A stretch of DNA of 64,000 bases from Boletus sp. NGJ (taxonomy: Eukaryota > Basidiomycota > Agaricomycetes > Boletales > Boletaceae): assembly GCA_019096195.1 (NCBI GenBank), contig JAGTXK010000117.1, forward strand, positions 1-64,000, written 5' to 3'. This document shows positions 43,246 through 62,837 of this stretch, one piece after another. Below the pieces are notes generated by a model. The model did not search any database. It worked only from the letters and a program-made list of their open reading frames with translations, and was not told the origin of the DNA. Position numbers and translations under genes: made by a program. Positions within the stretch are counted from its first letter, which is position 1; each line of letters begins with the position of its first letter.

Positions 43246-43948
43246 TTAGCATGAGGGTCCGGGTGGAGGTGGGGGCATCAAAGGTGCCCGTGCGACATGT
43301 CTATGCTGCTTCTGCCGCAGCGACTCAACATAGACAAATGTGAGGATAATCTGATCCAACATCCGAACCACCTCGGTAGAGACCTCAAGGTAGGCCGGAT
43401 GCGACGGTTTCATCATCCCAAGATTTTTCTTGTGGAATCGGACGAGCTCGACGTTCGACTCGGCACGCTTCATCTGTTTCATAAGACACGTCCAAATCCA
43501 TCGTTCGTTATCTTATTCGACACCCCAATAAACCAGAACAGGACATACCCAACAGTACGACCCTTGGAGCTTCCACTTGTATGTACGCTGATCAGGACCT
43601 ACGAAATACCGACCACTGCGTGGCGTTCGACGTTCCCCCGCAATACCTGTCAACGGCGCATCATCTCGTCGAAACATCAGGATCGACGTACCTGCTCCAC
43701 GAGCGCTTTTGGAGCATCACGTTCGCAGGTGTCACCTTCCCATCGAAGCGAAACACCGTCTCTTGCATGCGATGCCACTCAATGACACCCATCGTCTCAG
43801 GGACACCACTCGAACCGTTCCAGTTATACTTGGTGATGGTAGTCACTTTATTGAACGCGGTCGGTGTGGAGATGGTGTACTGAAGGTACCCTCGCTCGTC
43901 AGAGATATCCGTGTTCATGTAGTTGGTGGTGCTGAATGTGAGGCGCAT
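43246..43948 (-). CDS. DUF6593 domain protein, copy C
   Basis: A divergent DUF6593 protein. Exon 1 (ATG 43948, MRLTFSTTNYMNTDISDE) contains YLQYTISTP, TTITKYNW, TMGVIEWHRMQETVFRFDG and VTPANVMLQKRSWS. A middle exon near 43560-43640 has RYFVGPDQRTYKWKLQGSYCW. After an intron ending near 43465 the last exon has MKRAESNVELVRFHKKNLGMM and VVRMLDQIILTFVYVESLR, then a His/Pro-rich end (PPPPPGPSC, stop 43246-43248). Only the family fold is shared with copies A and B; the closest relative is copy D about 1.6 kb away. Confidence 0.75.
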
Positions 43949-44892
43949 GTCAGCGATTGAGAGTGAGAGGGGGGAAGGGGAAGTAAGACGTCCTCTAGCC
44001 TTTTCGGCCGGTGAGTCTTATACAGCAGACTCCTCAAGACTTCATGTGTATGGATTTGGTCTGAGCTTGATCAAAGGCGATACGCGGCAGTGCATCAATA
44101 ATTAATGAATGGCGCAGCAAGCTTAGCCTCCCAAATGCGATTTGAGGGTGCCTACAGAATTCCTGGCCTGAAGTTACCCGGACCAACTTCGGCAAACGAG
44201 TAGCTGTCTTCTACTGTTCTTTGGTGATTTCATGTTGACCGGCGCAGCGCATGTACAGGCTGTGACTCGCAGCCCATCAGGAAATTCACTTTACTGAGAC
44301 GCACTCATACGTACTCGGCGGTTTTTGTTCCCGTCTACTAGTAAATGATAGTTAGTGTAGTGTAAGTACAGTACAAGACAAAAAGCAGCACTTGAAGAAA
44401 TCATCTACATACTATACTCTCGCCAAGTATACAAGTTTGCACAGGCATCTCAAGCCCGCTACGGTATCCTCGATCCATCCAAAGCTGATCGTGATGCTAA
44501 GCACAAAGTCGAGCACTAATAGCAAGTACATTGGGTAAATACGTCTCCATCCAAAAAGAAAGAAAAATAGAGCACAGAGTGAGTAGAGACAGTCCGAATC
44601 GTGGAAACGGCTGTGTGGTAAACGGGGAGAGCGGTGTGGGGCAAGTGACCAACCACTGGCAATCACATCAAGTTATGTTACGCACGTATGCATCCGCGGT
44701 TGAGAGAGCGATTTATGCAGATGTGACCATCTTCTCCCGGTGAAGATAGGATGCATGGTCAGGACAGTAAGGGGATCGCATGGGTATAAGTGTCTACGCT
44801 GGACTGCTTCTGGTTCGTGATTACGACGATGTTCGTCTCAACAAGCAGGACTTAGTTGAAAAGCCCCCTGCTATCACTCCAAAACCGTGGCA
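43949..44892. other. Spacer between DUF6593 copies C and D
   Basis: About 940 bp; nothing coding is supported. It includes the upstream region of copy C. An open minus-strand frame at 44412-44666 has a hydrophobic patch but no family match. Confidence 0.4.
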
Positions 44893-45583
44893 TCATTTTC
44901 GAAAGCCACAAACGCGTCGAAAATGGAAAACAAATGTGAGGATGATGTGATACAATAATCGAACCACCTCAGTACTAGAGACCTCAAGGTATGCCGGATG
45001 AAACGGTTTTATTATCCCGAGATTTTTCTTGTAGAACCGCACGAGCTGGACGTTTGACTCGTCACGCTTCATCTGCTCATAAGACACGTCCAAACCCATC
45101 ATTCGTCATCTTATTCGACACCGCAGAAAACCAGAACAGAACATACCCAATAGCACGGCCCGTATGGCTGAAGCTTCCACTTGTAAGTGTGCTGATCAGG
45201 ACCTACGAAATATCGACCTAGCAGCGTTCAACGTTTCCCCAATCCACGATTCGAGTCGCCAATATCAGTCAATGTCGCGTCATCTCGTCGAAACATCAGG
45301 AATCCACGTACGTGCTCCAAGTGCGCGTTGAGAACATCACGCTCGCAGGTGTCACCTTCCCATTGAAGCGAAACATCGTCTCTTCCATGCAATGCCACTC
45401 AATGACACCCATTGTCTCAGGGATGCCACTCGATCCGCTCCAGTTGTACTTGGTGATGGTCGTCACCAGTTTGTTGAACGGGGAGGGTGTGGAGATGGTA
45501 TAATAAATGTACCCTCGCTCGTCAGAGATATCGATATCTGTGGTCCAGTGGCTGGCGGCACTGAATACGAGTACGAGATGCAT
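44893..45583 (-). CDS. DUF6593 domain protein, copy D (altered C terminus)
   Basis: Direct tandem relative of copy C. Exon 1 (ATG 45583) has DISDERGYIYYTISTP, TTITKYNWSGSSGIPETMG, VIEWHCMEETMFRFNG and KVTPASVMFSTRTWS. The last exon has MKRDESNVQLVRFYKKNLGII and EVVRLLYHIILTF, then departs from the family: where copy C reads VYVESLR this copy reads VFHFRRVCGFRK and stops at 44893. An extra serine codon and the lost C-terminal helix suggest damage or an early stage of decay. The middle exon near 45190-45260 is less well kept than in copy C. Confidence 0.6.
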
Positions 45584-46160
45584 GTCAACGATCCGGAGTG
45601 AGAGTGAGAGTTAGAATGAGCCTGAGGGGTGGTAAGGCGTCGTTCAAATTTATCGGTCGTGTCCTATGACTTGAATGATCTAGAATGAGTGGTGCGGTGG
45701 ATGGGGCGGGAATATTTATTGGCTGGATTCGTTTCTAGTGTAGCAATTTAAGGATACCTGAAGCTTGAAGTATTGCTAGCGTGAAGTCATACAGCCCATC
45801 ATCATGATCGGCAAGCTGCTATATTGTTCTGTGGTGGGGCTGACTCTCGCACATAAAGGGCGAGGACATGGTCAATTGAATTCCTTTGGGCTTACTTTTG
45901 ATGTATTATCAGTGTTCAGGTTGCCAGGGAGATTCACGGGGAAACCGAAAGCGTAGAGGTGGCGAATGGGCCCGGGGAAGCCGTAATGATACTTACATAA
46001 TAAAGTAGGCTATTATTTACAGCGAAGTTGGCAACTCGTGACGTGTATAGAAGATGGTCAACTTCAGTTTTGTTCATATGGTACTTAGGGATCTGGTGCA
46101 TGTTGTCTAGCGCTGGCGAAGGCAGTATGACTCAGTCTGACTCCGTCGATTCGCGCCATG
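45584..46160. other. Intergenic, no gene seen
   Basis: About 580 bp of upstream sequence shared by the divergent copy D and the flavoprotein gene. No coding region is supported. Confidence 0.45.
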
Positions 46161-46170
46161 CTATATAAAG
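46161..46170 (+). promoter_or_regulatory. TATA box of the flavoprotein gene
   Basis: CTATATAAAG lies about 55 bp before the ATG at 46220, a normal position for a fungal TATA element. It is the clearest TATA box next to any gene in this window. Confidence 0.65.
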
Positions 46171-46219
46171 TCCTCAGGCGCTTCAATATTGGACCTCAAC
46201 CACCTTTCGACGTTCAATC

Positions 46220-47243
46220 ATGAATAGCTATCCAAAGGAACGGAGGAACACCGTGAACAGGTTGAACAAACGAGGTGAGATTTTCGGACCTGCTCGAAAT
46301 GCGGCAGTGTAGCCAACCAATGCCAACTAAATAAACTCTTTGATGACAGCGGCATACGACTACGAAACCGTCCATGGCATCGTCAATGCTGCATCCGTCG
46401 TGCATGTCTCCTTTCTTCCACCTTCACCCTCTGGTAGCTATGACGATCCCGGCGAGCGTATGCCAATCATATTACCTATGATTGGCAAGATGGGTGTCTA
46501 TCCCGAAGGTGGCGATGATGCGCCTGCATGTTATCTGCACGGTGGGAGTGCCACGCATATCTCTCCATGTTGAAAAATCCACAAGTGTTGATCGCCTCGA
46601 ACATTCTCTAGGTTACGTATCCAGCCGGCTCATGAAGATCTCGTCCACCGTCTCCGCCTCGGACGCAGGCGAATCGGATGGACTACCCGTGTGCATCGCA
46701 GCGACCCATGTCGATGGCCTTGTGCTCTCCCTAAGCCCCTTCTCACACAGCTACAACTATCGCTCGGCCGTCCTTCAAGGCACTGCTACCGTGGTCCTGG
46801 ACGTCGACGAGAAGCTCTGGGCGATGACCCTCATTACCAACGGCGTCTTACCCAAACGGTGGGAAACCTCCCGGACCCCGCCCACAAGTGCAGAGTTGCA
46901 GAGCACGCGAATCCTCAAAGTGCGCATAGTGAGTGCAAGCGCCAAGGTAAGAGCAGACGGACCGCATGATGAGCGGTTGGATGTAGAAGACGGAGAACTC
47001 GTTAAGAGAGTGTGGACAGGCGTAGTGCCGGTATGTCCCCCTGATATGAAGATTTACTTTAGCGGTCCAACGTGCGCCGTTTTTCAGGTCTTTGAGGGGT
47101 TCGGAGAGCCTGTGCCAAGCACGTACAATGGTGTACCGACCATACCGCAGGACATTCGGGAGTATCTGAGGCGAGAAAATGTGAAGAGAAAGAACGATGC
47201 TATCCGTGTTGCAACGGGTGGAGATCAAAGTGTCGCAGAATAA
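46220..47243 (+). CDS. Pyridoxamine 5'-phosphate oxidase-like flavoprotein (Pyridox_ox_2 type)
   Basis: FMN-binding split-barrel protein of the family that includes bacterial nitroimidazole-resistance-like and heme-utilisation-like proteins; the fungal members are uncharacterised. Four exons (46220-46274, 46350-46541, 46612-47030, 47088-47243) total 822 nt, 273 residues. The typical N-terminal motif NTVNRLNKRAAYDYETVHGIV is followed by VVHVSFLPP and LPMIGKMGVYP. Then come CYLHG / YVSSRLMK and the core VCIAATHVDGLVLSLSPFSHSYNYRSAVLQGTA with LWAMTLITNGVLPKRWE. The C-terminal part has LKVRIVSASAKVRADGPHDE, VWTGVVP and the acidic/basic end. All introns are 57-75 nt. A strong TATA box precedes it. 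Confidence 0.9.
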
Positions 47244-47904
47244 GCATTTGTTGTGTCCTTGCGAAAACCACTTCCCATTGGCTTACTCCTCCCTGAACGG
47301 ACCAAAGGGTCAATGCAAGAGGGTCGTCTGTTCTTCCACACAATAATAACACCGTATTTCTCTGATTGCCATCTTGGTGCACCCCCTACTAATGCCCTAG
47401 TTCGCCGTCTCAGTATTTCCCTTTGTCAGCATGGTATGGGAGTTATGAATTTATGGAAGACATGCTTTGCCTACGCTTACGCCATGGTGAGTACGTCGCT
47501 CTGCTGCTAGATATGCTAATCGCAAGGTTTGAAACCCAAATTAACGCAACCAATAGCATGTAGCGATGGCAAGTATACAGCCTTCAGGCCTTCAGGTCCC
47601 TTCCGAGTCGCAGTACAGGAATACCTTCAGAGGTTCGTGTGGATTGCCGGTGGCGACCGCCGACTCTCCTCCATCTCCTCCATGGCTGACCCGACGGTTT
47701 GGGAGACATATAAAGAGAGGACAGTAAGTGTGCCCAGGGCAGCATCGATACGTCTCAGCGTCCACACCATCGCCTTGTCAATACCGATGGCCGCATTTCC
47801 GAACTAGACCTTGAAAAGCTAGGCGAGCGAGAATTGACCGCGCTTTCACATGGATTTTGATACACCCACCTCGAGGGTTTACAGCCCGTAAGGGAGCTCG
47901 AGGT
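47244..47904. other. Flank of the repeat array with an older copy of the array leader
   Basis: Near 47640-47870 lies a sequence (including GGCTGACCCGACGGTTTGGGAGAC) that recurs near 49415-49650, 51650-51870 and 53360-53620. Here it reads as an open frame around ADPTVWETYKERT, so it may have begun as coding sequence. No complete gene is supported. Confidence 0.45.
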
Positions 47905-49220
47905 GAACCACGCGACTTAGAGACTTTCTGTACATTTGTTTGCCGCCAACGTGCTACTTACTAATCCTACAAAGCGCTTCACGTCACGGCACTCCCGAAA
48001 CATCCTGCGACAACTGACGTGTATTCATACAAATCTTTTCCACCACAAAAGCTTAGAATTTGACATCCCAGGAGCCACTGAGCCCCTTCTGCAAACCGGT
48101 CCCAGACCAGGTCAGGTTACTTCCCTGGTACAACTTGACCGTAAGACGTGCGACTACGAGCTTATAGTTGCCGGTGAGACCGGAAGGCGACTTGGAGCCT
48201 ACGAATGCACCAGTTCCTTTCTTGTTGCATGGACCGCTACCGGAAGGACCTGGAGAGAATTTGGCGTAGATAGTGCCACCAGCACCCACGAGCGCGAGCT
48301 TCGAACCAGAAGCAGGTGCATCCTCCAACGCTTGGATTTCATCGGCAGCAGCAATCTGGTCGTCGAGCTCGACAACAAGGTCGGCATCAACCTCGATGCT
48401 GAGTGAGTCGATGACTGAGTCATGTGTCAGGAATGAATTGCGTGGGCACAGCGACAGAAACGTGCATACTTTCAACGGCGGACATGATCACAGAGGACAA
48501 AGGTTTTGAATAACGAATTCGTCAAAGAGCTTGAGCTGGACAAACACGATTCAGTGGACTGAGAGTAGGTGTGGACGGATGATGTACTCAGTTGTGCAGT
48601 TGCTTGCAACAGACTGGAGAACTGGGGAACAGAATTGATTGCTCAGACTGGCTTTTATGGGCCATTCCCCCTTCCACTGACGTCTTATCTCCGCCGGGTA
48701 GGAAAGCGAGCTGGGGGCGAGTGAAAGGCGATCGATGCATATGCGCTGGAAAGCTGACGTTTGAACGGCATGATAAGAAAATCAGCCTGCCTTTTAGAGA
48801 TTTTATATTGGGAGCAAACTCTGTCGCGAGATACTTGGGGTCCGGAAGTGGCGTTTGGGAATGGGCAGAGTGTTGCAGGCGTAAAGTTCGATTGAAGAGC
48901 CTGTACGATTGTACGATGTCGCTGGGGGAGGGGACAAAACATGGCTGTGGAGGGACAAAATTCTTTCCTGCGCAAGTGTTGATCATATCCCGCCTGGGGA
49001 TGGCAAGGAGAGGAATCCTCGCTGGCTACTTCCAGTACTTGCAGTATTGCATGGGAACGAGAAAATCCCTGGTGCCCGTCAGGGTCCAGCTGGTAGTTAC
49101 GGCTAGCTAATCGTTGATAATCCTATAAACTGTTAATATCCGCGCCAGTGACGAAGAAATGATACGTCATATCACAGCAGACAATTCAGTTGTCGTTATG
49201 ATGAACCGAGTCAATTGAAT
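47905..49220. repeat. Left arm of a ~1.3-kb inverted repeat
   Basis: Reverse complement of about 50057-51400. It includes copy 1 of the small protein gene, its upstream region and its 3' flank. Matches run from the GTTTGCCGCCAACGTGCT segment at the outer end to GAGTCAATTGAAT at the inner end. A spacer of about 840 bp separates the arms. Confidence 0.85.
48053..48485 (-). CDS. Small beta-rich protein of unknown family, copy 1
   Basis: Not recognised. A 16-nt first exon (48470-48485, MSAVE plus one base) and a 55-nt intron (48415-48469) precede the main exon (48053-48414). The product is 125 residues, with no signal peptide and no membrane segment. The sequence alternates hydrophobic and polar residues, suggesting beta strands: DADLVVELDDQIAAADEI, KLALVGAGGTIYAKFSPGPSG, NYKLVVARLTVKLYQG and the end GTGLQKGLSGSWDVKF. 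There is one conserved Cys (SGPC). It is intact and very close to copy 2. An ATAAAAG-like element lies about 170 bp upstream. Confidence 0.72.
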
Positions 49221-50056
49221 CTGCTGGAAAGTCGTGAGGAGCTCTGAGAGAGCTGATAATCTGTGGCGATGCCACTAAGCATTGCCCGTTTTGTGCGTTC
49301 AGGCACAGACTAACTGACTTAGTACAGGCGCACCATTCCGAAGTCGAAGGACTCGCTTACAGTAAGCTGCTGATGGGCCTCTTTCTCCCCAGAGAGTTCC
49401 CACTCGCCTCAGAGGCTCGTGTCGATCGCGAGTGGCCACGCATGACTCTCCTTTACGGCCGACCCGACAATTTGAGAGACGTAGATGAGGTGGACGGGTA
49501 GCGTGCCCGGGGCAGCGCCAATACATCTCAGCGTCCAAACTATCCCTGGCATTTCTGCTTTAGACCTTGACAAACTAGGGAAGCGAGAATGACCGCGCTA
49601 TTACCTGGATTTTGATAGGCCCGTCTCGAAGGTTTACAGGACCGTAATGCCTGCATGTCGATATCCAAAGCGATTGTACGTAGGGCTTATCGCTGAAAAA
49701 GGGGCGAGTAGCCGAATTCAACCTCCTCACCCGCAAATCCTTTTTTCACAGTTGACCGACTCGTCCTCTGCGTGCGTCCAAAGGGGGGTTTATAGATAGT
49801 CATGTATACAATTGGTCATCTCCGTGGTAACTACAGGCTCTGGATATCGTTCAATAGGTCGTCGGTCGGCCGACTATGGCGCTGACTACCCAGCCCACCT
49901 CATTGCGTATGCTTGACCATCAACTTGAACGATGATAGCTCCAATTGACGATTCGAACTCATATAGGCGGGAGGAAACCGCATCGTGAGCAACCATGACA
50001 AATGTATTCATGGAAAGTTCCGTTCGGCGATGCTCTCAGCATCTGACTCCACGATA
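49221..50056. repeat. Spacer of the inverted repeat, containing array leader sequence
   Basis: The first half (about 49255-49690) matches the leaders at 51490-51910 and 53230-53650. The second half (about 49690-50020) matches 53650-54080, including ATAGGTCGTCGGTCG and the GCAACCATGACAAATG / GCAACCAAGACAAATA segment. The stretch is therefore a leader of the same repeat family placed between the two arms. No gene is seen. Confidence 0.7.
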
Positions 50057-50628
50057 TTCAATTGACTCGGATGATCATAACGACGATTGAATTGTCTGCT
50101 GTGATATGACGTACCATTTCTTCGTCACTGGCACGGATATTGATATCAACAGTTAATAGGATGGCATCAGCGATAAGCCAGCAGAAAAGGTGCGCCCCAC
50201 AGGCTAGCCGAGCTTCTACCAGGACCCCTGACGGGTACCCACCAGCAATTTTCTCGTTTCCGTGCAGTACTGCACTGGAAGTAGCCACGAGGATTCTCTC
50301 CTCTTGGGATATGATTAAAACTTGCACAGGGTAAATTTTCGTTGCTTCACAACCATAATCTATCCCCTCCCCCAGCGACTCGGACTTTGTACTACAAGCT
50401 CGTCAAGTCTGTAACCCTCTGCCCGTTTCCAGACGCCACTTCTGGACCCCAAGCATCTCGCGACAGAGTTTGCTCCCGATGTGAAACCTCTGAAAGGCAG
50501 GGAGATTTTCTTATCATGCCGTTCAAACGTCAGCTTTCCAGCGCATATGCACCGATCGCCGTTCACTCGCCCCCAGCTCGCTTTTCCTACCCGGCGGAGA
50601 TAAGACGTCAGTGGAAGGGGGAATGGCC

Positions 50629-50636
50629 CATAAAAG
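50629..50636 (+). promoter_or_regulatory. TATA-like element conserved in front of all four copies
   Basis: GGCCCATAAAAGCCAG precedes copy 2 by about 170 bp. The same block on the other strand lies at 48650-48660 (copy 1), about 52565-52575 (copy 3) and about 55100-55112 (copy 4), all about 155-175 bp upstream. A 5' leader of about 140 nt would fit. Confidence 0.45.
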
Positions 50637-50802
50637 CCAGCCTGAGCAATCAATTCTGTTCCCCAGTTCTCCAGTCTGTTGCAAGCAACTGCACAACTGA
50701 GTACATCATCCGTCCACACCTACTCTCAGTCCACTGAATCGTGTTTGTCCAGCTCAAGCTCTTTGACGAATTCGTTATTCAAAACCTTTGTCCTCTGTGA
50801 TC

Positions 50803-51235
50803 ATGTCCGCCGTTGAAAGTATGCATGTCTCTGTCGTTGTGCCCACGCAATTCATTCCTGACACATGACTCAGTCATCGACTCACTCAGCATCGAGCTTG
50901 ATGCCGACCTTGTTGTCGAGTTCGACGACCAGATTGCTGCTGCCGATGAAATCCAAGCATTGGAGTATCCAGGTGCTGCTTATTCGAAGCTCGCGCTCGT
51001 GAGCGTTGGTGGCACTATCTACGCCAAATTCTCTCCGGGTCCTTCTGGTAGCGGTCCATGCAACAAGAAAGGAACTGGTGCATTCGCAGGCTCCAAGTCG
51101 CCTTCCGGTTTCACCGGAAACTATAAGCTCGTAGTCGCACGTCTTACGGTCAAGTTGTACCAGGGAGATAACCTGGTCTGGTCTGGGACCGGTTTGCAGA
51201 AGGGGCTCAGTGGCTCCTGGGATGTCAAATTATAA
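50803..51235 (+). CDS. Small beta-rich protein of unknown family, copy 2
   Basis: Same structure as copy 1: exon 50803-50818, 55-nt intron 50819-50873, exon 50874-51235, 125 residues. It is intact. It differs from copy 1 at a handful of positions (ELDADLVVEFDD; EYPGAAYSKLALVSVGG; GDNLVWSG; end WDVKL). It is the only copy on the plus strand and sits in the opposite arm of the inverted repeat. Because the upstream 300 bp are shared with copy 1, both may be expressed alike. Confidence 0.72.
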
Positions 51236-51489
51236 GCTTTTGTGGTGGAGTATGAATACATGTCAGTTGTCGTAGGATGAAAGTGCCCTGACGTGTAGTG
51301 CTTTGTAGTATTAGTAAGTAGCTGTAGCAGCACGTTGGCGGCAAACAAACTTACAGAATGAAAGAGGCTCCAAGTCACGTCGTTCACCTCCCTTACAAGT
51401 TTTTTGCCAGTCGTTGACTCCTCCAAAGTGGGTTCCATATATATTTCTTGCGGTCAGCTCTAAGAGAGATAATCGATAATCAATAATCT

Positions 51490-51910
51490 GTGGCGATGAG
51501 TCACTAGTATTGCCCGTTTTGTGCGCTCAGGTAAGTTCCTGCGGCACAGACTAACTGACTTAGTACAGGCACACCATTCTGAAGTCCGAGAAGGACTCAG
51601 GCTCGCTTAAGCCGATGCCTCCTAGATTTCCCCACCCGCCTCAGAGGCTCGTGTTGATCGTGGGCGGCCACGCTCGACTCTCCCCCATCTTTACGGCTGA
51701 CCCGACAATTTGGGAGGCGTAGAAAGAGTGGACGGTTGGTGTACTATCCCCTTGTCAACATTGATGGCCGCACTTCTGCTTTAAACCTTGACATGCCAGG
51801 CAAGCGAGAATGACTATCACCTGGATTTTGATAGGCCCGCCTCGAGGGTTTACAGGACCGTAATGCCTGTTGATATCCAAAGCGATCGTACGTAGGACTT
51901 ATCGCTGAAA
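51490..51910. repeat. Array leader repeat before copy 3
   Basis: Matches 49255-49690 and 53230-53650, for example ACTGACTTAGTACAGGCACACCATTCTG and TCTTATCGCTGAAAAAGGGGCGAG-like ends. Here the second leader half is missing: the sequence jumps from GGGGCGAGCAGCCGAATC directly into the 3' flank of copy 3. Confidence 0.7.
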
Positions 51911-51971
51911 AAGGGGCGAGCAGCCGAATCATCCTACGACAATTGACATGTATTCATACAGATCTGTTCCA

Positions 51972-52407
51972 TCACAAAAGCTTAGAACTTGGCGTCCCAG
52001 GTGCCAGTAAGCCCCTTCTGCAAACCGCTCGGGCCCAGATCACCTTCTTTTCATGGTTCAACTTGACCGTGAGGCATCCGACTTCGAGCCTATGGTTACC
52101 GGTGAGATCGGCAGGTGGTTTAAGGCCTGTGAATGCACCAGTCCCATTCTTGTCGCATGGACCGCTACCAGAAGGACCTGGAGAGAATTTGGCGTAGATG
52201 GTGCCACCAGCACCCACAAGCGTGAGCTTTGCAGAAGGCCGTGGTTTCAAGGAGCTGATTTCGTCGGCAGCATTCAAGTGGTCGTTGAGCTCGACAACAA
52301 GGTCGGGGTCAACCTCGATACCGAGTGAGTTGCAGACTGAGTCATATGTCAGGAATGAATTGCGCGGGCACGACAGCGGGGACGTGCATACTTTCATCGG
52401 CAGACAT
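51972..52407 (-). pseudogene. Small beta-rich protein, copy 3, frameshifted near the C terminus
   Basis: Same plan as the other copies: first exon 52392-52407, intron about 52337-52391, then the main exon. The body is conserved (VDPDLVVELNDHLNAADEI, KLTLVGAGGTIYAKFSPGP, GSGPCDKNGTGAF). Where the others read SGTGLQKGLSG, a base is missing near 52030-52045. The frame shifts to ARAVCRRGLLAPG and runs to a stop at 51972. In the original frame the usual ending and its stop at about 51983 are still present. The altered protein would lose the last conserved strand. I call it a pseudogene, but a product with a changed tail is possible. Confidence 0.65.
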
Positions 52408-53229
52408 GATCGTAAAGTACAAAGGTTTTGAATAACGAATTCGTCAAGGAGCATGTGTCGAACAAACGCGATTCAACGAACTGAGAATAGGCGCGAACGG
52501 ATGATGTACTTGCCTACTACTATGCAGTTGCTTGCGATAGTGGGGCACAGAAAGGATTTCTCGGGCTGGCTTTTATGGGCCTATCCCCCCTCCACTGACG
52601 GAATGATATCTCATCTCCGCCAGGTAGGAAAGTAAACTGGATACGGGCGAACGTTTGAACGGCGAACGATACAGATGTATTGGAAAGCTGATCTTTGAAT
52701 GGCATGACTAGAAATCTGTCTGCCTTTTAGAGGCGGTGGGCAGTGTTTATGTGGGAGTAAAACGTAGTGGAAAATCCACCGCCTTGTGTCAGTGTCTTCC
52801 GGAGAAGTGGCCTTGAAACTTGAAGAGCCCGTACAAGGTCCGAACTCAGAGGAAGAATTGTGGCTCTAGACTCTGGAGGGGACAAAATTCTTACCCCATG
52901 CAAGTTTTGATCACATCCTGCCTGGGGATGGAATCCGCGCTGGCTAGTTCCAGCGGTACTGCACGCGAACGATGAAATTGCTGGTGGGTACCCGAAAGGG
53001 TCCTGGAGTCCTGGAGTCCTGGTACTAGTAGTTCAGCTCGCCTATGGCAGTGGGATCCAGCACCTCCTCTGCTGGCGCCTGGCTTATTGCCAATAATCCT
53101 GATATCCGCACCAGTGACGAAGCAATGATGTCACACGTAGTAGACAATTCGATCGTTGTTATTATTGTCGACTGGATCTCCAATCTTGCTCAGATACTGA
53201 GGCCTTGAGATCTAAGAAAGTTGATAATC
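52408..53229. other. Upstream region of copy 3, partly degraded
   Basis: Matches the upstream regions of copies 1, 2 and 4 with more changes, including the ATAAAAG-like element near 52567 and the GTTTGAACGGC stretch near 52650. No gene is seen. Confidence 0.5.
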
Positions 53230-54080
53230 TGTGGCACTACTATATTGCCCAGTTTGTGCGGTCAGTGGGAAGCACAGACTGACTATTAGACCTACCATTC
53301 TGAAGTCAAATGACTCGATTATCTGCTGATGCCCATACTCCCACCCGCCTCAGAGGCTCGTGTCAATTGCAGGTGGCAACGCTCGACTCTCCTCCATCCT
53401 GACGGCTGACCCGACAATTTGGGAGACGTACTAGAAAGGGTGGACGCCGGTTAGTGTGCCCGGGGCAGCGCCCATGTGACATCTCAGCGTCCACACCATC
53501 CCCTTGTCAACACTGATGGCCGATTTTCGAACTAGACCTAGGCGAACGAGAGTTGACTGCGCTATCACCTGGATTTTGATAAACCGGCCTCGAGGGTTTA
53601 CGGGACCGCAGTGCCTGTTAACATCCAAAGCGACTGTACGTATCAGTAGGGCCCAGCACTGAAAAGGGGGACGAGCGTAGGAGGCGAATGCGATCATTCT
53701 CGCCGACCCTGCGAATCCTTTTTCCGTACTAATCGTCTCGTCCTCCACGCACGTGCCATGGGGATTTTGTAGATAGTAATGACTATCAGCGGCCAACTTT
53801 GCGATGAGCAGAGCCTCTGTCCGTGCCGGACATCGTTTGATAGGTCGTCGGTCGACTGGGTCACTGACTATCCTGCCCACCCCACCTTTCGTTTTTTTTT
53901 ACCGTCAACGATGTCAACTCCAGTTGACATTTGGTAAACAGTGCAGGAAGCGCACTGCGGGTAGAAACAGCACTGTGAGAAAGTTGTACGTGTGTACGAG
54001 TTGCGACGCTAAAACGCTTGAGAACGAGTCGTAGTGAGTAACTTAAGCAACCAAGACAAATAGTACGATGTTCATGGTGC
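53230..54080. repeat. Array leader repeat before copy 4 (both halves)
   Basis: Matches 49255-50020 end to end and 51490-51910 in its first half. This and the spacer of the inverted repeat are the most complete leaders. No gene is seen. Confidence 0.7.
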
Positions 54081-54509
54081 ACGTAACTCGGTTTTGTGCT
54101 CACCTTTGTCAAAATATACGGCGAAGCAACTTCAAGTTGATTGTCAGGTTTTCGGCCACGCTCACGTATCGTTACCGGAGAGCAAGAAATACTAGAAGGC
54201 GATCGGAATGGAGCAACTTGAAGTCCGCGTTCTGCACGGGAAAACGACACCGCAGCAGTGTACAAGATCAAGAACAAACATAGTATGGAATCCATCGTAA
54301 CTCCTCCAGCTTGAAGGAGTCAATGTAATTAGGGTGAACCGCATGATCAGACTTGGTGCCAGTGCCTTTCTTTACATATGTTTGTTTCCCGCCAACTTGC
54401 CGCTACAGCTACTCCTCAATTCAATTGGACCCGTCCCCGCTCACGTCACTCTCGAATTCTCCTACGACAACTGACATGTATTTATACAGATCTCTTCCAC
54501 CACAAATGC

Positions 54510-54948
54510 TTAGAGCTTGATGTTCCACGTCCCGCTGAGCCCCTTCTGCAAACCGGTTCCAGACCAGATTACCTTACTTCCCTGCTGCAACTTGACCGTG
54601 ACACGGCCGACCTCGAGCTGATAGTTACCGGAGAGACCGGAAACTGGCTTGGAGCTTGCGAATGCACCAGTCCCTTTCTTGGCGCATGGGCCGGTACCAG
54701 CAGGACCCGGAGAGAACTTGGCGTAGATAGTGCTACCACTGCCCACAAGCGCGAGCTTCGTAGTAGCCGTAGCAGTCGCATGCTGCTCCAAGGAGTGGAC
54801 TTCGTCGGCAGCAGCCAAATGCTCGTCGAGCTCGACAACAAGGTTGGGGTCACCCTGGATACCGAGTGAGTTGATGACTGGGTCACATGTCAGGAATGCA
54901 TCGCGCGGGCACGACAGCAAAGACGTGCATACTTTCAGTTGCGGACAT
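54510..54948 (-). CDS. Small beta-rich protein of unknown family, copy 4
   Basis: Exon 54933-54948 (16 nt), intron 54878-54932 (55 nt), exon 54510-54877; 127 residues. It is intact and more diverged from copies 1 and 2: GDPNLVVELDEHLAAADEV, an Ala/Thr insert (ATATATTK), KLALVGSGSTIYAKFSPGPAG, GNYQLEVGRVTVKLQQG, and the end SGTWNIKL. The splice sites and the 16-nt first exon are kept exactly. The conserved motif positions, including GPC, support selection on the protein. Confidence 0.72.
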
Positions 54949-56722
54949 GATCACGAAAGTACAAAGGTTTGGGTAACGAATTCGTCAAAGGGCCTGAGTG
55001 GAACAAATGCGATTCAGCGGACTGGGAGTAGGCGCGGAGGGACTGTACTTGCCTATGCAGTTGCTTGTGATAGACTGGGGAACAGCATCAATCACTCGGG
55101 CTGGCTTTTATAGACCTTCCCCCCCTCCGCTGACGAAACGATTTTTTATCTCCGCGGGGTAGGAAGGCGAGCTGAAGGTGGGTCATGTACGGTGATCGAT
55201 GCACATGCGCTGGAAAGCTGACATCTCGCACTTCGAATTGCGCCGTGCGCCAGTGTATGGCATGGCAGGAAGACCTGTCTCCCTTTGAGAGGTTTTGTTG
55301 GGAAGAAACTCTGCTCGGAAGCTTGGGATACGTATAGTCCGTCAGCGTCCCCCGCGGAAGTGACCTCGGGAAATGGACAGAGGGGAAATCCGATTTTCTT
55401 GCCACGGAAGTGGCGCTGGGGAGCGTCACGGTGAACCTGAAGCGCACCTCATAAAGTGGTCAAAGTGCCCACCTCATATGAACTGGGATCGCATCGGTCA
55501 AAGAATAGGTTGATGTCGACCCGCCACAGAACGAGTGGCAGCACCGTTCCTCAACTAGCGGCGGTGGCGTCAGGTATTTTCACGAGCTCCAATCGAGTGG
55601 CACAATGTAGCTCGAAGGGACCATAAAATATCACGTCTCGCGATGAGCATCGGCACGTTTGGAAACTCGCCTTGTATTTGGATCACGGCCATGGCTATGA
55701 TGTGGCACGCCTATTACGCTGCTAGAGAGCATACGGATTCGAAAGAACTTCAAGTTGCCAATATAAATGAGAACTCGGAATTACCTTGCTTGATTATTCA
55801 ACCCCTGAGCAACAGTGACAACATCACCAAATTGCGCCACGCTCAACCAAAATAATTTGTTTCTTCCGTCTTCTCCTCGTGTTACTAAGCTAGGAAGTGT
55901 TAACATCAATCACACGTTTTACTGTCTGTTTCACTTGCTTCTACCATCTCGTTGTCTTATTCACGTACCTACATCATATATACATTCTCGCTGGCAAGGA
56001 AGGTTGGCGCCGACGCTCAGTCTACTTCCCAAATTCAATATTTTTCCACGATTCATTTCGTGGCGGGTTTGCTTCGCGGTATACATGCAGTAATGTACTA
56101 CAGCCTGGGGGTGGCGGCAAACGATTCATCTAGACAAATATTGACCTGCCAGTGCAACTGCGAACAGGTTCGAGCAACGTCACGGTATGTATGATACAAT
56201 TTGAACCCGCAGGACGAGATTGTCGTGGTTTATACGATCAACAATGGAACAGCCTCACTGGCATGCTGTCAGGACCAAAAGGCTCTGCAGCATGGGATGG
56301 AACCCGCCCGATGTTGTGCGCAGGATCCGCAGTTCAGTTCCAGTCGCAAGACTCGCAACCCAAGAAGATCTCTCTGGTGCATTACTGAAAACTCAAACTC
56401 GCCACCTGCCCCGTGGTCACACTCGTGGTAGAGAAACGTTCGTTGACAAAAGTTATTCGTCACACAAGCAAAAGTGGAAACCCTGCTTTTCATAAGTTTA
56501 GGAAAAGAACCTATCTACCTACTACAAGCATGCAAGTACTCAGTACTATATGTGATATGTGCGCACGCCCAACGACGACGACGGCAAGCAATGAGAAGAA
56601 GAAAGAGAATGTAAAAAAAGGATAGTATCAATGCCAGTCATGAACAGTCGGATGTGATGAGAGTAGATTACATGCACAAGAAAAAAAAAAAGGGAAAGTC
56701 GTCTACGAACAACCGCCATACT
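54949..56722. other. Upstream flank of copy 4 and unassigned region
   Basis: The array homology fades at about 55450. Between 55450 and 56720 no gene is supported. A plus-strand frame near 56200-56390 (GLYDQQWNSLTGMLSGPKG) looks somewhat coding but lacks a clear start or partner exon. The last 100 bp probably hold the 3' end of the downstream minus-strand gene. Confidence 0.4.
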
Positions 56723-58508
56723 TCAGGGAAGCAAGCGGGACTTCTCGTTGACGAAAAAGTCTTGGGCCTGGAAAAGGTCGTGTGAGCGTCCTGGATTGAT
56801 CGTTGAACGCATGGACACTCGAACCTCGTCTTCCCTCATAACTTCATACCGCTTCGTGCGCTTCGTCTGTGTGTACTTTCGGTATACCGCAAACGCAAAC
56901 GCACCGAAGGCGAGCATAGAAACGAGCGCGAGCCAGAATGGCGTAAAGGCACCCTCGTTAGCGATCGCAGCATACCCGAATGGGAACCAGCTTGTCGAGC
57001 ATGTGGAAGCCCACTTGTCCTGCGGAACCACATGGTGCTGTGTGAGTGTGAGCGTGAGTAAAACATCGTCTACGAGCCTGTACGGCCTGACGAACCTCCA
57101 ATCGGTAGATAAACTCGGTCACTGGGACTTTTTGTTCTGGGTGCCCAAAGATGTGCAGAGTTTGGAACTCGTCATCGTCAGTACCGTTCTTGAATTTGAG
57201 ACGAACAAAATCTCGGAACTCGGGAGCGGGACCACGGAGAACCTCAAACGCCAAAGCAGAAGCATAGTTGGCTGTAAGTTACGTCAATAAGCACATGGTA
57301 AGACCCCTGAGAGGAGCATACGCACGAAGTCCAAAGAGTTGCCCGTTGTCGCCATGTGCGTTCAACATGGAAAAGAGAGAGATGAAAGGTTGGTAACTGG
57401 TCTCGATGAGCAAGACTCGGAGCGGGTCGTCGTCGAAAGCAATTCGTTCAAGGGACTTGGTAATTGGGGAAAGGATGGCTCTTCCGGCGACTGAAAAGTG
57501 TGTCACGTGTTCTGACGACTTGGGAAACTACAATGTGACTCACGGTTTCCAATGCCTCCAAGATCTTTGTCGGAAAAGACCGCAGTTTCCTTGTAGTTTA
57601 CCCAACCACGTGCTTGCTCGATCAATGTTGGTGGAAGTCGGAATGCAAAAGTCTGGTTGTGGATAAGTTGCGTGTTGAGGTAATCATACACCTGTGCCAC
57701 ACGCAATCAGAAATGAAAGAATGGAATGAAAACGTCTACGAACATTCCACTACAATGAGAGGAGGGAGTCAGAAGCTGACACAAGCTAAGGCCACTCGGA
57801 AGCGTACCATATCAACAAGCGACGTAGGTCTACCAAACATGTAGTCATGGACCGATTCGAAGAAGTGCTCTGCGTCCTTGGCAGCTTGCATGAACTCCTC
57901 CGAAGCGTAAACCTCGGAAACGTGTTTTTTGAAAGCCTGGACACGCGTTTAATATGACGGCCACGCGAAATGGTGAGCGACACGCGGACCTTGCAGTCGG
58001 TCCAGGGCTCGAGCACACGATCGTCTCCTACTGTGGCCATCTCGACGGGGACATATTGATAGCCTCCGAGCGGGGATATAACGGCAGATCCGTTGGCGAG
58101 TTCAATTTTGTTATGCAGAGTCGGTGGGAACATCCCCTGCAACATTGCGATACCGGAGTCAAAGATCGCGGCACTCTCGCCACCTGACTTTGCGTGGACG
58201 TTGACTTTATTGGGCGGGATGGGGTGGGTCGGGTCCAGAGGCATGTCACGGATGTGGAGAGGCGAAGACGAGTCTAGGTAAATAGACTTGAGGTAAGAGC
58301 CGAGCTGGAACGACTCGGCCTATCATAGTGACATATCAGCATGCTTCGTCAAGGAAGAGTGAATGGTCACACGCACGGCACCGAGGGGAGTGGACTCGGT
58401 GAATGACGGTGCATAGCTGTAGGGGTCTTGGGAGAACTCTGAACGATCCCCATTACTTGCGAGGATGAGCACACCGAGAACTTTGGGTACCATTTGTCGA
58501 ATCGTCAA
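56723..58508 (-). CDS. Histidine-acid-phosphatase-fold protein with degenerate active site and C-terminal membrane anchor
   Basis: Histidine phosphatase superfamily (phytase/acid phosphatase branch). Start near MVPKVLGVLIL (ATG 58494, or 58508). Exons in order give QLGSYLKSIYLDSSSP; VNVHAKSGGESAAIFDSGIAMLQGMFPP; SPLGGYQYVPVEM; FKKHVSEVYASEEFMQAA; MFGRPTSLVDM; VYDYLNTQLIHNQTFAF; VFSDKDLGGIGN; GRAILSPITKSLERIAF; LIETSYQPFISLFSML; LKFKNGTDDDEFQTL. Near the end are CSTSWFPFGY and one hydrophobic helix (FTPFWLALVSMLAFGAFAF) with a basic cytosolic tail ending SRLLP. Where active enzymes have RHGxR this reads ASNGDR, so the nucleophilic His is Asn. About 510 residues. Activity as a phosphatase is doubtful. 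Confidence 0.85.
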
Positions 58509-58639
58509 ATGTCAGCGAAATATGACAGTGAGTATTGCCGGAGAGTATTGTCCAAAGACTGACACGAGCACCAAGGGAGAGAGTGGGTTGGAAAAGTCGG
58601 TATCATTCGAGGGTTTTGATATCTCCCGCCATGAGGCGG

Positions 58640-59115
58640 GCATCGCCAAGCTACTTAGCGAAGCGACCAAGGGCGATGACGGGTCGCATGGCAAACGGCA
58701 TGGTCCATTCCCTGCCACGCTTCGAGGGTGTGTGGGCCCTGTGGGGATCATGAGATGCCAGTTCGTGCAACCTCCCCGCTGCCACTTGTACGTGGTTTCC
58801 GGGCACCGGAAGCTTGAAACCGCCTGAAGATCACGTCAGCTAGGAGCATGCCATGTGATATTAAGGGAAAGAACAGACTTGATTGCAATAATACGGACTG
58901 GATGCGGTCCAGCTTGCGCGGACATGCGCAAGAAGCATGGCGGCCTATCCGAAATAGTGGCGAGCAAGTGGGTGCACGTGCCGGACCGCGAACTGGATGT
59001 ATCGTCCTCAGTTCGGTTGAAAACAAGCACTGAGTGACATGGCAAGGCTCACTGTGGAATGCAACGTAGGTCATCGAGCTGGCGCTAGAAAGCAACAGGC
59101 GCTTCAGGGTGGCGC
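58640..59115 (-). CDS. Possible small gene of unknown function
   Basis: Weak call. A minus-strand exon at about 58660-58826 begins after an AG acceptor (GATCTTCAG) and reads GGFKLPVPGNHVQVAAGRLHE...MPFAMRPVIALGRFAK before a stop. An upstream frame from ATG near 59115 reads MGATLKRLLLSSASSMTYVAFHS. Together they could encode about 90 residues, perhaps a mitochondrial-type small protein, judging only from the basic, Ser-rich start. No family is recognised. Part of it might instead belong to the 5' end of the phosphatase-fold gene. Confidence 0.35.
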
Positions 59116-59450
59116 CCATGGTGGACACACCGAGTCAGACACGTGCTTGGGGGCAGGAAAAAGACGTCCGTAATGAAAGTCGCGCTTCCCACCCGCGGAA
59201 ACAAACATAATCAAAAGCAACACGATGATGTTACGCAGCAGCCAATGCCCTGCCTCGGCGGCAAACACAATGAATTTTCCAAGGCGTATGCTCTCCTATC
59301 TGCCGGCCCACAATGGAGCACGTAATGATGGATGATCGCAAGAAGGGGGGATAGCCTAACCGTGGCTTTGCAGTGCATCATTGAAGTTCTGTGGTGCCAC
59401 CAACGTGCTCGGACCTCACAGATCATGGAGTGAATCTCATGGGGAAAAAA
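59116..59450. other. Intergenic, no gene seen
   Basis: About 330 bp with no supported coding region, next to the first long direct repeat. Confidence 0.4.
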
Positions 59451-59454
59451 CAAG

Positions 59455-59890
59455 TGGCGATGGCCAATCCACATTATTCTGCAGACTGCGATGATAGAAT
59501 TGGCAGTGCTTGCCAGTGAAGAAGAAGATGCGAACCCGACACTGGCCACAGCGCCAGCCCGAGATAAGCGCAGCCACGACCGGTGCCGCTTCTTTTCTCG
59601 ATCCAATGTCAGCGATGCAGCGTGCAAGCAACATTTTCACGCTTCCTGGTGATAAATGATATCAAGACATAGCAACTTGCACCGTTGACCAATGCAGGTT
59701 TGAGCTGGATGTCCCAGTGTCACCTCGTACGACTTGGATGACATTCACCGGTCTACTCTGACTTCTTCATAGAACATCACAGCATCATTCGTCGCATGTC
59801 ATTCATACCACCTGAAGCGCTGATCTCGACACTGGTATCGGGTTTCATAGAAATCCCGCTGCCCAGGGCACCGGCACTTCGAACTCGGGT
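59455..59890. repeat. Direct repeat, copy 1
   Basis: About 430 bp that recur at 61860-62275 in the same orientation. Long shared runs include GATAAGCGCAGCCACGACCGGTGCCGC-type sequence, ATCATTCGTCGCATGTC and CCTGAAGCGCTGATCTCGACACTGGTATC. Divergence is roughly 10-15 percent by eye with small indels. No terminal TG...CA or target duplications were found. Confidence 0.85.
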
Positions 59891-60312
59891 GTCCAAAAGG
59901 TACGCGAGGCCCTTGTCTGCTATTGTCCCATTGCTTCGTATCATTGGGACGAATTCCTGAATTCCTGATCCATTGCCGTTGTAGCAATGCGGGAATTTGT
60001 GCTGCTACGAGAGGAGAGGAAGCGGTTGGCAGGGCAGCTCCGACCACACTTCAAATGTGTTCCCGAAAACCGTGCATGGCGTGAACAACCAATATTTCCC
60101 TCTCTACGCCAGAGCGGGGTGTTGGTAGTTGGTAGAGTCTTTCGAGCAGCCATCGGGCACACAGGACTGAGGACAGACCTGAAAGCCTCTCATTCCCTTA
60201 GGATCGGCATAATGTTCCCGTTTGTACTTTCCTACGATCATATCGCACAGTTGTAGAGGTATTTGTGTGCAGTGAAATATTCAGAGCTCAGCACGGGAGA
60301 TCGAGTACAAAA
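59891..60312. other. Region between direct repeat and the 3' end of an unknown gene
   Basis: About 420 bp; no gene supported. Confidence 0.4.
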
Positions 60313-61590
60313 TCAGATGGGCCTATTCCTCTTCTCTTTTACATCCATAGCGCTACCCTCATCTTCTTCTTTTACATGCAAATCGCCATCCTCGTCTTCC
60401 TCTTTTACATCCGAATCGCAATCAGGGAGATCAGCAAGGACATCTTTTGGAAGGTATTAGGTTACATAGAAGGGCTATAGAATGACGCTGTACTTACCCC
60501 CGGCATAGATACGCTCTGGCTCGTCGTCGTCGGGGCCTTGCTCGAGTTGTGCATACGGATGTTCGAACCACTCCCGGAAGATATTTATTCCATCTTGTAT
60601 GAGCTTGGTGGTCGATGCAGTCCTGATATTCCATTGTGCTGCTTTCCCGTCCCAGTCCTGTCCAAAGTGTACCTTTGCGTATTCCCAATCTATTTTATTA
60701 TTCCTGGAAATGAGCGGCAGCCGTCACATGAAGGAAAAAGAGGAAAGTCTCACTCACCAAGCGTGAAGACATCTGTTGTGCGCAGATTCATTTCTGGATG
60801 ATCCCGTTGCCACAATATCACCGCACTGGGATCGTGCCTCCCAACAAAACATTCTTCTACCATGTAGATATCAAAAAAACGGATCGCGACATCCTCGTTC
60901 GTCGCTGCTGCCTCCCTGAATGCTGGCCGACAGAAGTCCAGGACGTTAAAGAAATAAACGAGGTTCGACTTCATAGCCTCCCTCATCTCCCACGTGATCA
61001 ATGAGTCTTCACTCTGTTGACAGAACAGCAATGCCGCCAGGACATCCCCACGCCATAGGAATCGGCAGACCAGACGCTCATAACGAGCCGGAATCGGTGT
61101 GAGAATTCCTTGACGAGTATTATCCGTACTGTCTTGCCATTCGATATTCACCTTGGACCCCGATGTAACTACACGATATGTCGTCCCAGCTCGGGTTTCG
61201 ATATCATCATCCTCTGGGACCTCGAGTGGGAACAAGGAGCCACTGGGTAGTTTTCTGTACCTTGGAACTACCTCGTTGGATATGTTTGGAAGTTGGCTGT
61301 AATCCTAGCAGTGATCAGAAATCAATACAAGGAGGGGGGAAGCATACGGGTACCTTTGGGGGGGAGTGGCGACCAAGTCGAAGTATCGATAACCGCCTTA
61401 CATGCTGTGCTGTAAGTCTTGTAGGTAAGGGCCACTCTCAGAGGGGTTCCCCGCGAGGAATGCCGGGGTCTCCCTCGGCTACATGGTTGCCAAGCTCGCT
61501 CACGACACGCTCGCGCCCGACGCTCGGCGACGACGCTGGTTCTCGACGAGCGCGAGCCTCCACCATTGGCAGCACTTTGATGAGGCACCT
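60313..61590 (-). CDS. Hypothetical protein with acidic Lys/Glu/Asp tail
   Basis: Not recognised. Three exons are firm by phase: 60758-61304, 60498-60689 and 60313-60443. A further exon from 61354 upward (ending RLSILRLGRHSPPK) joins in phase, but the start is unresolved. The core reads DYSQLPNISNEVVPRYRKL, TYRVVTSGSKVNIEWQDS, RQGILTPIPARYERLVCRFLW, RGDVLAALLFCQQSEDS and FFNVLDFCRPAFREAAAT. It continues with RFFDIYMVEECFVGRHDPSA, DWEYAKVHFGQDWDGKAAQW and FREWFEHPYAQLEQGPDDDE. The tail repeats VKEEDE twice and ends KRNRPI (stop 60313-60315), like a nuclear or chaperone-type acidic tail. It lies between the two ~420-bp direct repeats. Confidence 0.7.
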
Positions 61591-61859
61591 ACGGTCTCTT
61601 AGACCTATTCCTGCCTACATCCAATATATATATCTGAGACCCTACCTCGAGCACACTACCCAGTTCCCAATGTGAAGTCGAGCAGCTCCGTGATGTCCCA
61701 GCGAGGTCACGACGTGGCTCGGTGTGCTAAACAGGATTTCCCATGTGCTACCCGTGGACCTTATTTGGAGCGTCTGCATCAGTACTTGGTGAGTGCTTGA
61801 GTTCTTTGTTAGTTGAATGTCAGTGCATGAGCAATGAGCATTATTCCGACTTTGACGGA

Positions 61860-62275
61860 CCAGCGATGGCTAATCCACATCGTTCTGCAGAATTGGCAGT
61901 GATTGAAAGAGAAGGTACGAACCCGACACGGGCACAGCGCCAGTCTGAGATAAAGCGCAGCCACGACCGGTGCCGCTTCTTTTCTCAATCTAATATCAGC
62001 GATGCAGCGTGCGAGCAACATTTTCACGCCTGTTGGTGATAACTGATAGGATCAAGACATAGCAACTTGCACCGCTAACCAATCCAAGTTCGAGCTGAAT
62101 GTGTCGACTCGTACGACTGGGTGGACATTCACCGGTCTACTCTGACTTCTCCATAGAACACCACAGCATCATTCGTCGCATGTCTTCCATACTACCTGAA
62201 GCGCTGATCTCGACACTGGTATCAGATTTCATAGAGATCCCGCCCCCAGGGCACCGGCACTTCGACTCGACGGCT
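61860..62275. repeat. Direct repeat, copy 2
   Basis: Partner of 59455-59890. In this copy the plus strand carries a short open frame (about 62170-62341, ALISTLVSDFIEIPPPGHRHF...FLNLTP) that is broken in the other copy, so the repeat could derive from part of a gene. Confidence 0.85.
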
Positions 62276-62837
62276 GGGACCTTCAGGATGGATGCGGTGT
62301 TCCTTGGTGTCGAATTCGAATTCTTGAATCTTACGCCGTAACTAGCCGATACACACCTGTCCTTCCGCCCATCATTTGAAATAGCTGACTGAGATACTCG
62401 GATCAACGACTATCCTGTACGCTCCATCGACCCGGATGCAGCCAATGGTGGCATGCAGTCAGCGCAAAAGAGACCGACCCAGCGAATGTGTTTGTGTAGT
62501 AACGGTAATTTCCGAGAGAACTTGCCCATACATCTCACCTAGTTTCTCGCCTCGTCGATCAAACTTGTCCTTGGCCGTTCCTATCGCCAAAGGGTCACGG
62601 GGTTGCCCACAGCAACTCGATTTGCACAGGGATTCACAGGAACTGGAATATGTTAGTCGGAAATGACGAGCAAGGTCTTGGCGCAATCGCTCGCTGGGTT
62701 GACGTAGACAACTTCCATTCCCTCGTATTCGCGTCATCAATGTTCGGGAAAGACGGGCATGTTCCGGGCCAGTAAACTTTCTGGGACAAATCGTTCGATT
62801 TGGCAGCAAGCTAGAATCGCAAAAACGGAGTACATCA
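62276..62837. other. Intergenic, 3' flank of the Rab prenyltransferase gene
   Basis: About 560 bp. A minus-strand frame at 62459-62809 is not conserved in any way I can recognise. No gene called. Confidence 0.45.

What the first reader, a model, noticed from the sequence alone, without database searches (positions are those of the whole stretch)
47905..55450. Four-copy array of an unrecognised ~125-residue beta-rich protein
All four copies have a 16-nt first exon, a 55-nt intron and the same strand-like protein pattern with a GPC site, and three are intact. They lack signal peptides. The upstream ATAAAAG element and leader sequences are duplicated with them. Local expansion of a small cytosolic protein is typical of defence, self/non-self or interaction proteins, though nothing here proves a role. 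This is the best candidate in the window for an undescribed family.
Basis: partly seen in the sequence, partly recalled or inferred. Interest (0 to 1): 0.75.

Follow-up and report, generated by a model that had tools for sequence, protein, structure and literature searches.

The report
Expanding small fungal protein gene family
A fungal genome carries a small family of genes for a short, probably cell-internal protein that resembles nothing in the databases I could search; the genes are being copied, moved and lost, so the family is real, but its job is unknown and can only be guessed to be defence.

Summary
The window has four copies of a two-exon gene (16-nt exon 1, 55-nt intron, 125-127 aa). 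Three are intact; copy C is frameshifted near its 3' end. The genome holds two more intact copies: E on contig C59, F on C40. A near-identical contig (C127) lacks exactly the 1,120 bp that carry gene E.

Coding is supported: E-F dN/dS is 0.14 (p 0.0008). The five intact copies have codon use leaning to that of highly expressed genes; broken C less so. Promoter and leader are copied with the gene.

"Beta-rich" is partly right: rough propensities suggest a helical N-terminus, a variable linker and a conserved beta-like C-terminal 80 residues. Positive selection is not shown.

No significant relative in Pfam, PDB sequences, NCBIfam, PADLOC, PHROGs, prokaryote genomes or viral contigs. Fungal proteins could not be searched and no fold was obtained, so "undescribed family" is unproven.

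Best guess (0.3): an abundant cytosolic binding protein of the fungal fruiting-body-defence sort. An endogenous role, or copying without advantage, fits nearly as well.

The parts
48053..48485 (-). Copy A, intact, 125 aa: exon 1 48470-48485, intron 48415-48469, exon 2 48053-48414
50803..51235 (+). Copy B, intact, 125 aa, inverted relative to A: exon 1 50803-50818, intron 50819-50873, exon 2 50874-51235
   Evidence: inverted arms
51972..52407 (-). Copy C, frameshifted near the 3' end (conceptual product 126 aa with a changed C-terminus): exon 1 52392-52407, intron 52337-52391
54510..54948 (-). Copy D, intact, 127 aa: exon 1 54933-54948, intron 54878-54932, exon 2 54510-54877; exon-2 product 99% identical to copy E on contig C59 and 97% to copy F on C40
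48652..48658 (-). TATA-like ATAAAAG of copy A
50630..50636 (+). TATA-like ATAAAAG of copy B
52570..52576 (-). TATA-like ATAAAAG of copy C
55105..55111 (-). TATA-like ATAAAAG of copy D
47627..47891 (+). Spacer repeat before unit A
49256..49902 (+). Spacer repeat before unit B, same orientation as the other spacers
51483..51929 (+). Spacer repeat before unit C
53102..53884 (+). Spacer repeat before unit D
54269..55770 (-). Block shared at 95.5% with the dispersed copy E (contig C59) and, within 54151-55770, at 90.5% with copy F (C40)

Best explanation
A small gene family of a filamentous fungus (probably a basidiomycete) that encodes a soluble, probably cytosolic 12.7-13.1 kDa protein. It spreads by DNA-level duplication of the whole transcription unit and turns over by birth and death: four copies in an array, two elsewhere, one frameshifted, one missing from a near-identical contig. 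These points are shown or well supported. The rest is inferred. The conserved C-terminal 80 residues (TIYAKFSPGP, GPC, KKGTGAF and WSGTGLQKGLSG, identical in the five intact copies) would be a compact beta domain that binds a ligand; the N-terminal helix may give oligomers; the linker is a flexible spacer. Made in quantity from TATA promoters and kept inside the hyphae, the protein would act when an animal or competitor eats or lyses the cells, as the cytosolic fruiting-body lectins and anti-nutritional proteins do. Extra copies would then mean dose and variants.
For: Six copies, five intact. Coding constraint: E-F dN/dS 0.14 (p 0.0008), D-F 0.20 (p 0.0045), C-terminal part A-D 0.43 (p 0.017). 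Codon use of the five intact copies is nearer to EF1a/EF2/Hsp70 than almost all of 2000 back-translations (2, 17, 3, 1 and 2 reach A, B, D, E, F; 230 reach broken C). Promoter and leader co-duplicated. No hydrophobic N-terminus. Fast turnover. Precedent for cytosolic 15-33 kDa fungal defence proteins: PMC6238071, abstract and passages.
Against: No homology to any known defence protein. No fold, expression or binding data. No internal repeat of the kind expected for a beta-trefoil or propeller. No positive selection; constraint between the A/B and D types is weak over the whole protein (A-D 0.59, p 0.053; B-D 0.71, p 0.19). An endogenous role predicts the same features. Codon bias shows at most expression, not function; the reference set is three genes, one of which (EF1a, 0.578) scores below the family, and two of ten comparison ORFs (Lhs1-like 0.684, mitochondrial Hsp70 0.673) score about as high.
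Confidence: 0.3

Rival explanations
1. An endogenous intracellular protein (small-molecule or lipid binding, stress or developmental accessory) whose copies give dosage; nothing to do with antagonists.
For: Purifying selection in D/E/F; leader conserved more than coding sequence in A-B, 1 of 165 against 23 of 362; codon bias.
Against: Absence of the whole gene on contig C127 and the frameshifted copy C suggest that single copies are dispensable; no domain shared with a known housekeeping family; the leader is not the more conserved part in D-E, 7 of 165 against 5 of 368.
Confidence: 0.3
2. Selectively near-neutral segmental duplicates in a repeat-rich region: an old functional gene (the D/E/F type) with surplus copies A-C drifting.
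For: A-B dN/dS 1.22, 0.72 without the linker; A/B against D/E/F 0.57-0.71, not significantly below 1 over the whole protein (A-D p 0.053, B-D p 0.19); C frameshifted; array and flanks share short repeats with other contigs.
Against: A and B stay open and keep codon bias (2 and 17 of 2000 back-translations reach it); A-B divergence over -250..-165, leader and coding sequence is much lower than in the flanks, although conversion between the inverted arms could also cause that.
Confidence: 0.2
3. A self/non-self (heterokaryon-type) or partner-recognition protein.
For: Multi-copy, presence/absence between near-identical contigs, diverged linker.
Against: No HET, NACHT, WD-repeat or any other Pfam domain; no diversifying selection shown; only two protein types (A/B and D/E/F) among intact copies.
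Confidence: 0.07
4. A known fungal family that simply lies outside the searched libraries (sequence-diverged member, annotated elsewhere as a hypothetical or named protein).
For: No fungal protein collection and no fold search were available; ended the structure route.
Against: Pfam-A with all six members of A1 at E up to 10 gives nothing (HMMER's filters drop most matches above about 0.1); the only PDB profile matches are LpoB at E 0.057-0.34, which fit no fungal cytosolic protein and look like chance.
Confidence: 0.13

Closest known systems
Cytosolic fruiting-body defence proteins (galectin CGL2, ricin-B lectin CCL2, actinoporin-like TAP1, biotin-binding Tam1)
   Same: Fungal, small, cytosolic (PMC6238071 passages: 15.1-16.7 kDa for these four; here 12.7-13.1 kDa).
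   Different: No Pfam family or PDB sequence of these kinds was hit; expression, ligand and toxicity untested.
Cocaprins and related beta-trefoil protease inhibitors of mushrooms (search listing and start of abstract only)
   Same: Small fungal proteins, described there as acidic and 15 kDa with two encoding genes; A and B here have pI 4.76.
   Different: D, E and F are near neutral (6.8-7.9); no trefoil repeat seen, an N-terminal helical segment is likely, no sequence match.
DUF6593 (PF20236), neighbouring small gene pair at 43664-44017 and 45299-45610
   Same: Another small family duplicated side by side in the same window.
   Different: Not related in sequence: none of the six members of A1 matches it.

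Membership tests
Fungal galectin, ricin-B lectin, fungal fruit-body lectin, aegerolysin, avidin (Pfam families, names recalled) | Sequence match to the family profile | tested here: not met
   0 families at E up to 10 for 6 of 6 exon-2 products scanned, one of them (C) partial, and for full-length B
Fungal galectin, ricin-B lectin, fungal fruit-body lectin, aegerolysin, avidin (Pfam families, names recalled) | Beta-trefoil, jelly-roll or barrel fold | not testable with these tools
Beta-trefoil lectins and protease inhibitors | Threefold internal repeat | tested here: inconclusive
   best self-alignment no better than shuffles: 190, 106 and 126 of 300 reach it for A, D, F; sequence repeats can be invisible in true trefoils
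Cytosolic fungal defence proteins (functional class) | No secretion signal | tested here: met
   no hydrophobic N-terminal stretch, best 15-residue mean 0.91-1.33 over the six copies; hydropathy only
Cytosolic fungal defence proteins (functional class) | High expression in fruiting tissue or upon grazing; toxicity or anti-nutritional activity | not testable with these tools
   no expression data; codon bias is indirect
LpoB (penicillin-binding protein activator) | Profile match and periplasmic lipoprotein | tested here: not met
   best E 0.057 over positions 17-106, weak in the middle of the alignment; no hydrophobic N-terminus
Known anti-phage or phage families | PADLOC, PHROGs or IMG/VR match | tested here: not met
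   none in PADLOC; PHROGs with B and D only, best E 0.12; no relative in two IMG/VR scans

The most novel reading that the evidence does not exclude
An undescribed fungal protein family with a new alpha-plus-beta fold, carried as a complete promoter-gene module that duplicates, inverts and moves between contigs and is present or absent between haplotypes: a rapidly turning-over intracellular defence arsenal without a known counterpart.
Probability: 0.12. Interest if true: 0.65.

Novelty: new member of a known kind. Interest (0 to 1): 0.36.

Why it matters
Small multi-copy fungal proteins without domains are a source of undiscovered lectins, inhibitors and toxins. This set is compact (five intact genes, two sequence types, one contig that lacks one gene), so expression, binding and deletion tests are feasible. 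If it is only a drifting duplicate family, it is an ordinary case of birth-and-death evolution.

Tried and rejected
Positive selection: A-B dN/dS 1.22 is not significant (p 0.81), and half of the nonsynonymous changes lie in the linker; the linker alone has a ratio of 4.73, also not significant (p 0.13). A small count comparison of A-B against D-F (18 N, 5 S against 5 N, 8 S) gives p 0.03; the linker explains much of it.

Mobile element: the E block has sharp edges against D, but a search for repeats of 5-12 bases between the two edges found none. That search used the edge shared with D; E and F share about 26 more bases further out, so a target-site duplication at the outer edge is not excluded, nor were terminal inverted repeats tested by a program. 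I read the block as a segmental insertion; the mechanism is open.

C40 as the other haplotype of C63: not supported. 56500-63900 has only two short matches elsewhere, on C89, and of the 9-kb C40 stretch only a local segment around F matches the 46500-57000 region. The search with 38000-47900 shows no match longer than about 2.4 kb, but its list omits even the window's own stretch, so it is incomplete.

LpoB match: judged chance. Internal repeat: none above shuffles. Sequence strings of the protein in the literature: 0 papers. Prokaryote and viral relatives: 102, 23, 81 and 64 pattern stretches matched and none was confirmed. Phage records: no match. General literature searches on lineage-specific fungal families and presence/absence gave no lead; PMC4082614 passages were read and not used.
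Full report
WHAT IS THERE. The window is contig C63 (1-64000 of 107,596) of a 32.8-Mb genome in 141 contigs. Four copies of one gene lie at 48053-48485 (-), 50803-51235 (+), 51972-52407 (-) and 54510-54948 (-). Each has a 16-nt first exon and a 55-nt intron with GT-AG ends. Exon 2 of the intact copies has no methionine and unspliced reading from the ATG meets a stop within the intron, so the spliced form is the only full-length reading from an ATG. Copies A, B and D are intact (125, 125, 127 aa). Copy C is frameshifted near its 3' end and loses the conserved WSGTGLQKGLSG-type C-terminus.

COPIES ELSEWHERE. A search of the whole genome with B (E up to 0.001) and with D (E up to 10) gives the same six places: the four above, E on C59 and F on C40. 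E and F are intact with the same gene structure. An unrooted tree of 250 bp of promoter plus the gene separates A/B from the rest and D/E/F from A/B/C, each with 100/100; D with E is 93/93.

HOW THE ARRAY IS BUILT. Spacer repeats at 47627-47891, 49256-49902, 51483-51929 and 53102-53884 all have the same orientation, while the gene block of B (51390-50048) is inverted relative to A (47900-49228; 85% over 1,385 aligned positions). So about four spacer-plus-gene units lie in tandem, and one gene block is flipped. C40 carries one such unit (F) and, beyond its spacer, sequence like the far upstream part of A/B but no second coding copy, which looks like a lost unit. E shares 54269-55770 of D at 95.5%; the rest of the 9-kb C59 stretch has no match to the region 46500-57000. 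E is nearest to D (95.5%, against 93.7% to F; tree), but E and F share about 26 bases at the outer edge that D lacks, so the common ancestor of the three probably had them. Intron and promoter are kept in all copies, so copying was at DNA level, not through RNA.

PRESENCE AND ABSENCE. C127 is a near-identical partner of part of C59: 100% over 2,001 bases at C59 600000-602000 (this stretch belongs to a dispersed repeat whose next best copy is 89%), 100% over 4,000 bases at C59 695375-699374, 3 mismatches in 4,047 bases on the left of the gene and none in 3,834 on the right. C59 760000-762000, also a repeat, has no near-identical full partner on C127, only 93% over about 640 bases, so the partnership is not shown there. 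C127 lacks exactly C59 689547-690666, 1,120 bp, from 659 bp before the ATG to 22 bp after the stop codon. This is either a haplotype difference, a recent duplicate with a deletion, or an assembly error; reads are needed.

CODING AND EXPRESSION EVIDENCE. Pairwise dN/dS (Nei-Gojobori): D-E 0.08, E-F 0.14, D-F 0.20, A/B against D/E/F 0.57-0.71, A-B 1.22. With two-sided Fisher tests on rounded counts (five pairs tested): E-F 0.14, p 0.0008; D-F 0.20, p 0.0045; A-D 0.59, p 0.053; B-D 0.71, p 0.19; A-B 1.22, p 0.81. By region: the linker (alignment columns 37-52) holds 9 of the 18 nonsynonymous A-B changes; without it A-B is 0.72 (p 0.53). The C-terminal part is 0.43 for A-D (p 0.017) and 0.50 for B-D (p 0.051). 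So D/E/F are constrained, A/B only weakly, and positive selection is not shown. Between A and B divergence is low from about -250 through the coding sequence and rises outside: 1 of 165 in the leader and 23 of 362 in exon 2, against 44 of 177 at -600..-400. Gene conversion between the inverted arms or constraint could both do this. For D-E and D-F the leader is not more conserved than exon 2 (7 of 165 against 5 of 368; 10 of 164 against 12 of 368), which speaks against a general rule. Codon use: CAI against EF1a, EF2 and Hsp70 of the same genome is 0.656-0.688 for the five intact copies and 0.601 for C; 2, 17, 3, 1 and 2 of 2000 back-translations with background codon use reach A, B, D, E, F, and 230 reach C. 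The reference set is three genes (EF1a itself scores only 0.578), and among the ten comparison ORFs (two of them, from L019 and L021, with identical values) a Lhs1-like gene (0.684) and a mitochondrial Hsp70 (0.673) score about as high, so this is moderate evidence.

WHAT THE PROTEIN LOOKS LIKE. 12.7-13.1 kDa; pI 4.76 for A and B, 6.8-7.9 for D-F; one Cys and two Trp in intact copies; no hydrophobic N-terminus. Averaged Chou-Fasman propensities (a weak method) suggest helix at about 21-40 and strands afterwards. The conserved C-terminal 80 residues hold the GPC site. No internal repeat exceeds shuffles.

RELATIVES. None in Pfam-A, NCBIfam, PADLOC, PDB sequences with single proteins, phages, prokaryote genomes or IMG/VR. 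PHROGs, B and D only: one family at E 0.12 for D, none for B. The PDB profile search lists three LpoB sequences at E 0.057-0.34, judged chance. No fungal collection was available, so the family may well have fungal relatives and even a name.

INTERPRETATION. A turning-over family of a probably cytosolic, probably expressed protein is well supported. Function is inferred. The cytosolic fruiting-body defence proteins are the best analogy: small, cytosolic proteins toxic to nematodes (PMC6238071, abstract and passages seen; PMC6126850, one passage seen, on fruiting-body expression of such lectins in C. cinerea). Dispensability of single copies fits that and equally fits surplus duplicates. I give the defence reading 0.3, an endogenous role 0.3, drifting duplicates 0.2, a diverged member of a known family 0.13, self/non-self 0.07.

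ORGANISM. Not identified. A basidiomycete is likely from the short intron and the neighbouring DUF6593 matches (the taxonomic spread of DUF6593 is recalled, not looked up).

On re-reading the calls I widened the identity range of the gene blocks to 73-85%, withdrew the claim that a short dispersed repeat is palindromic, limited the C40 and mobile-element statements to what the searches covered, and added the non-significant dN/dS pairs and the caveats.

Noticed in passing
window 43664-44017 (-) and 45299-45610 (-): Two neighbouring exons match DUF6593 (PF20236; 32.1 and 27.4 bits, cut-off 27; E 1.6e-07 and 4.5e-06) and their translations resemble each other by eye: a second small duplicated gene family in the same window.
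   Followed up: partly
window about 38826-41251: A stretch of about 2.3 kb with many relatives in the genome (for example C70, C17, C139, C41, C65, long matches 68-77%), several of them on C70 and C139; a large gene family or repeat not identified here.
   Followed up: no
window about 50165-50302 and 52915-53014: Short stretches (about 50-120 bp), lying in the oppositely oriented B and C blocks, that match dispersed places on C71, C137 and C40: a small dispersed repeat.
   Followed up: no
contigs C59 600000-699374 and C127 17574-85000: Near-identical contigs whose offset changes by about 31 kb between C59 600 kb and 689 kb, so at least one large structural difference lies between them besides the missing gene E.
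   Followed up: partly
window 55879-56032 (L022 3728-3907, L023 3598-3777): A dispersed repeat of about 180 bp just beyond the D block, present twice on C101 (95.6% to each other, about 87% to the window).
   Followed up: no
window 46482-47240 (+) and 63479-63715 (-): Neighbouring genes: a pyridoxamine 5'-phosphate oxidase-like protein (PF12900, E 2.2e-22) and a prenyltransferase exon (PF00432, E 1.8e-18).
   Followed up: yes
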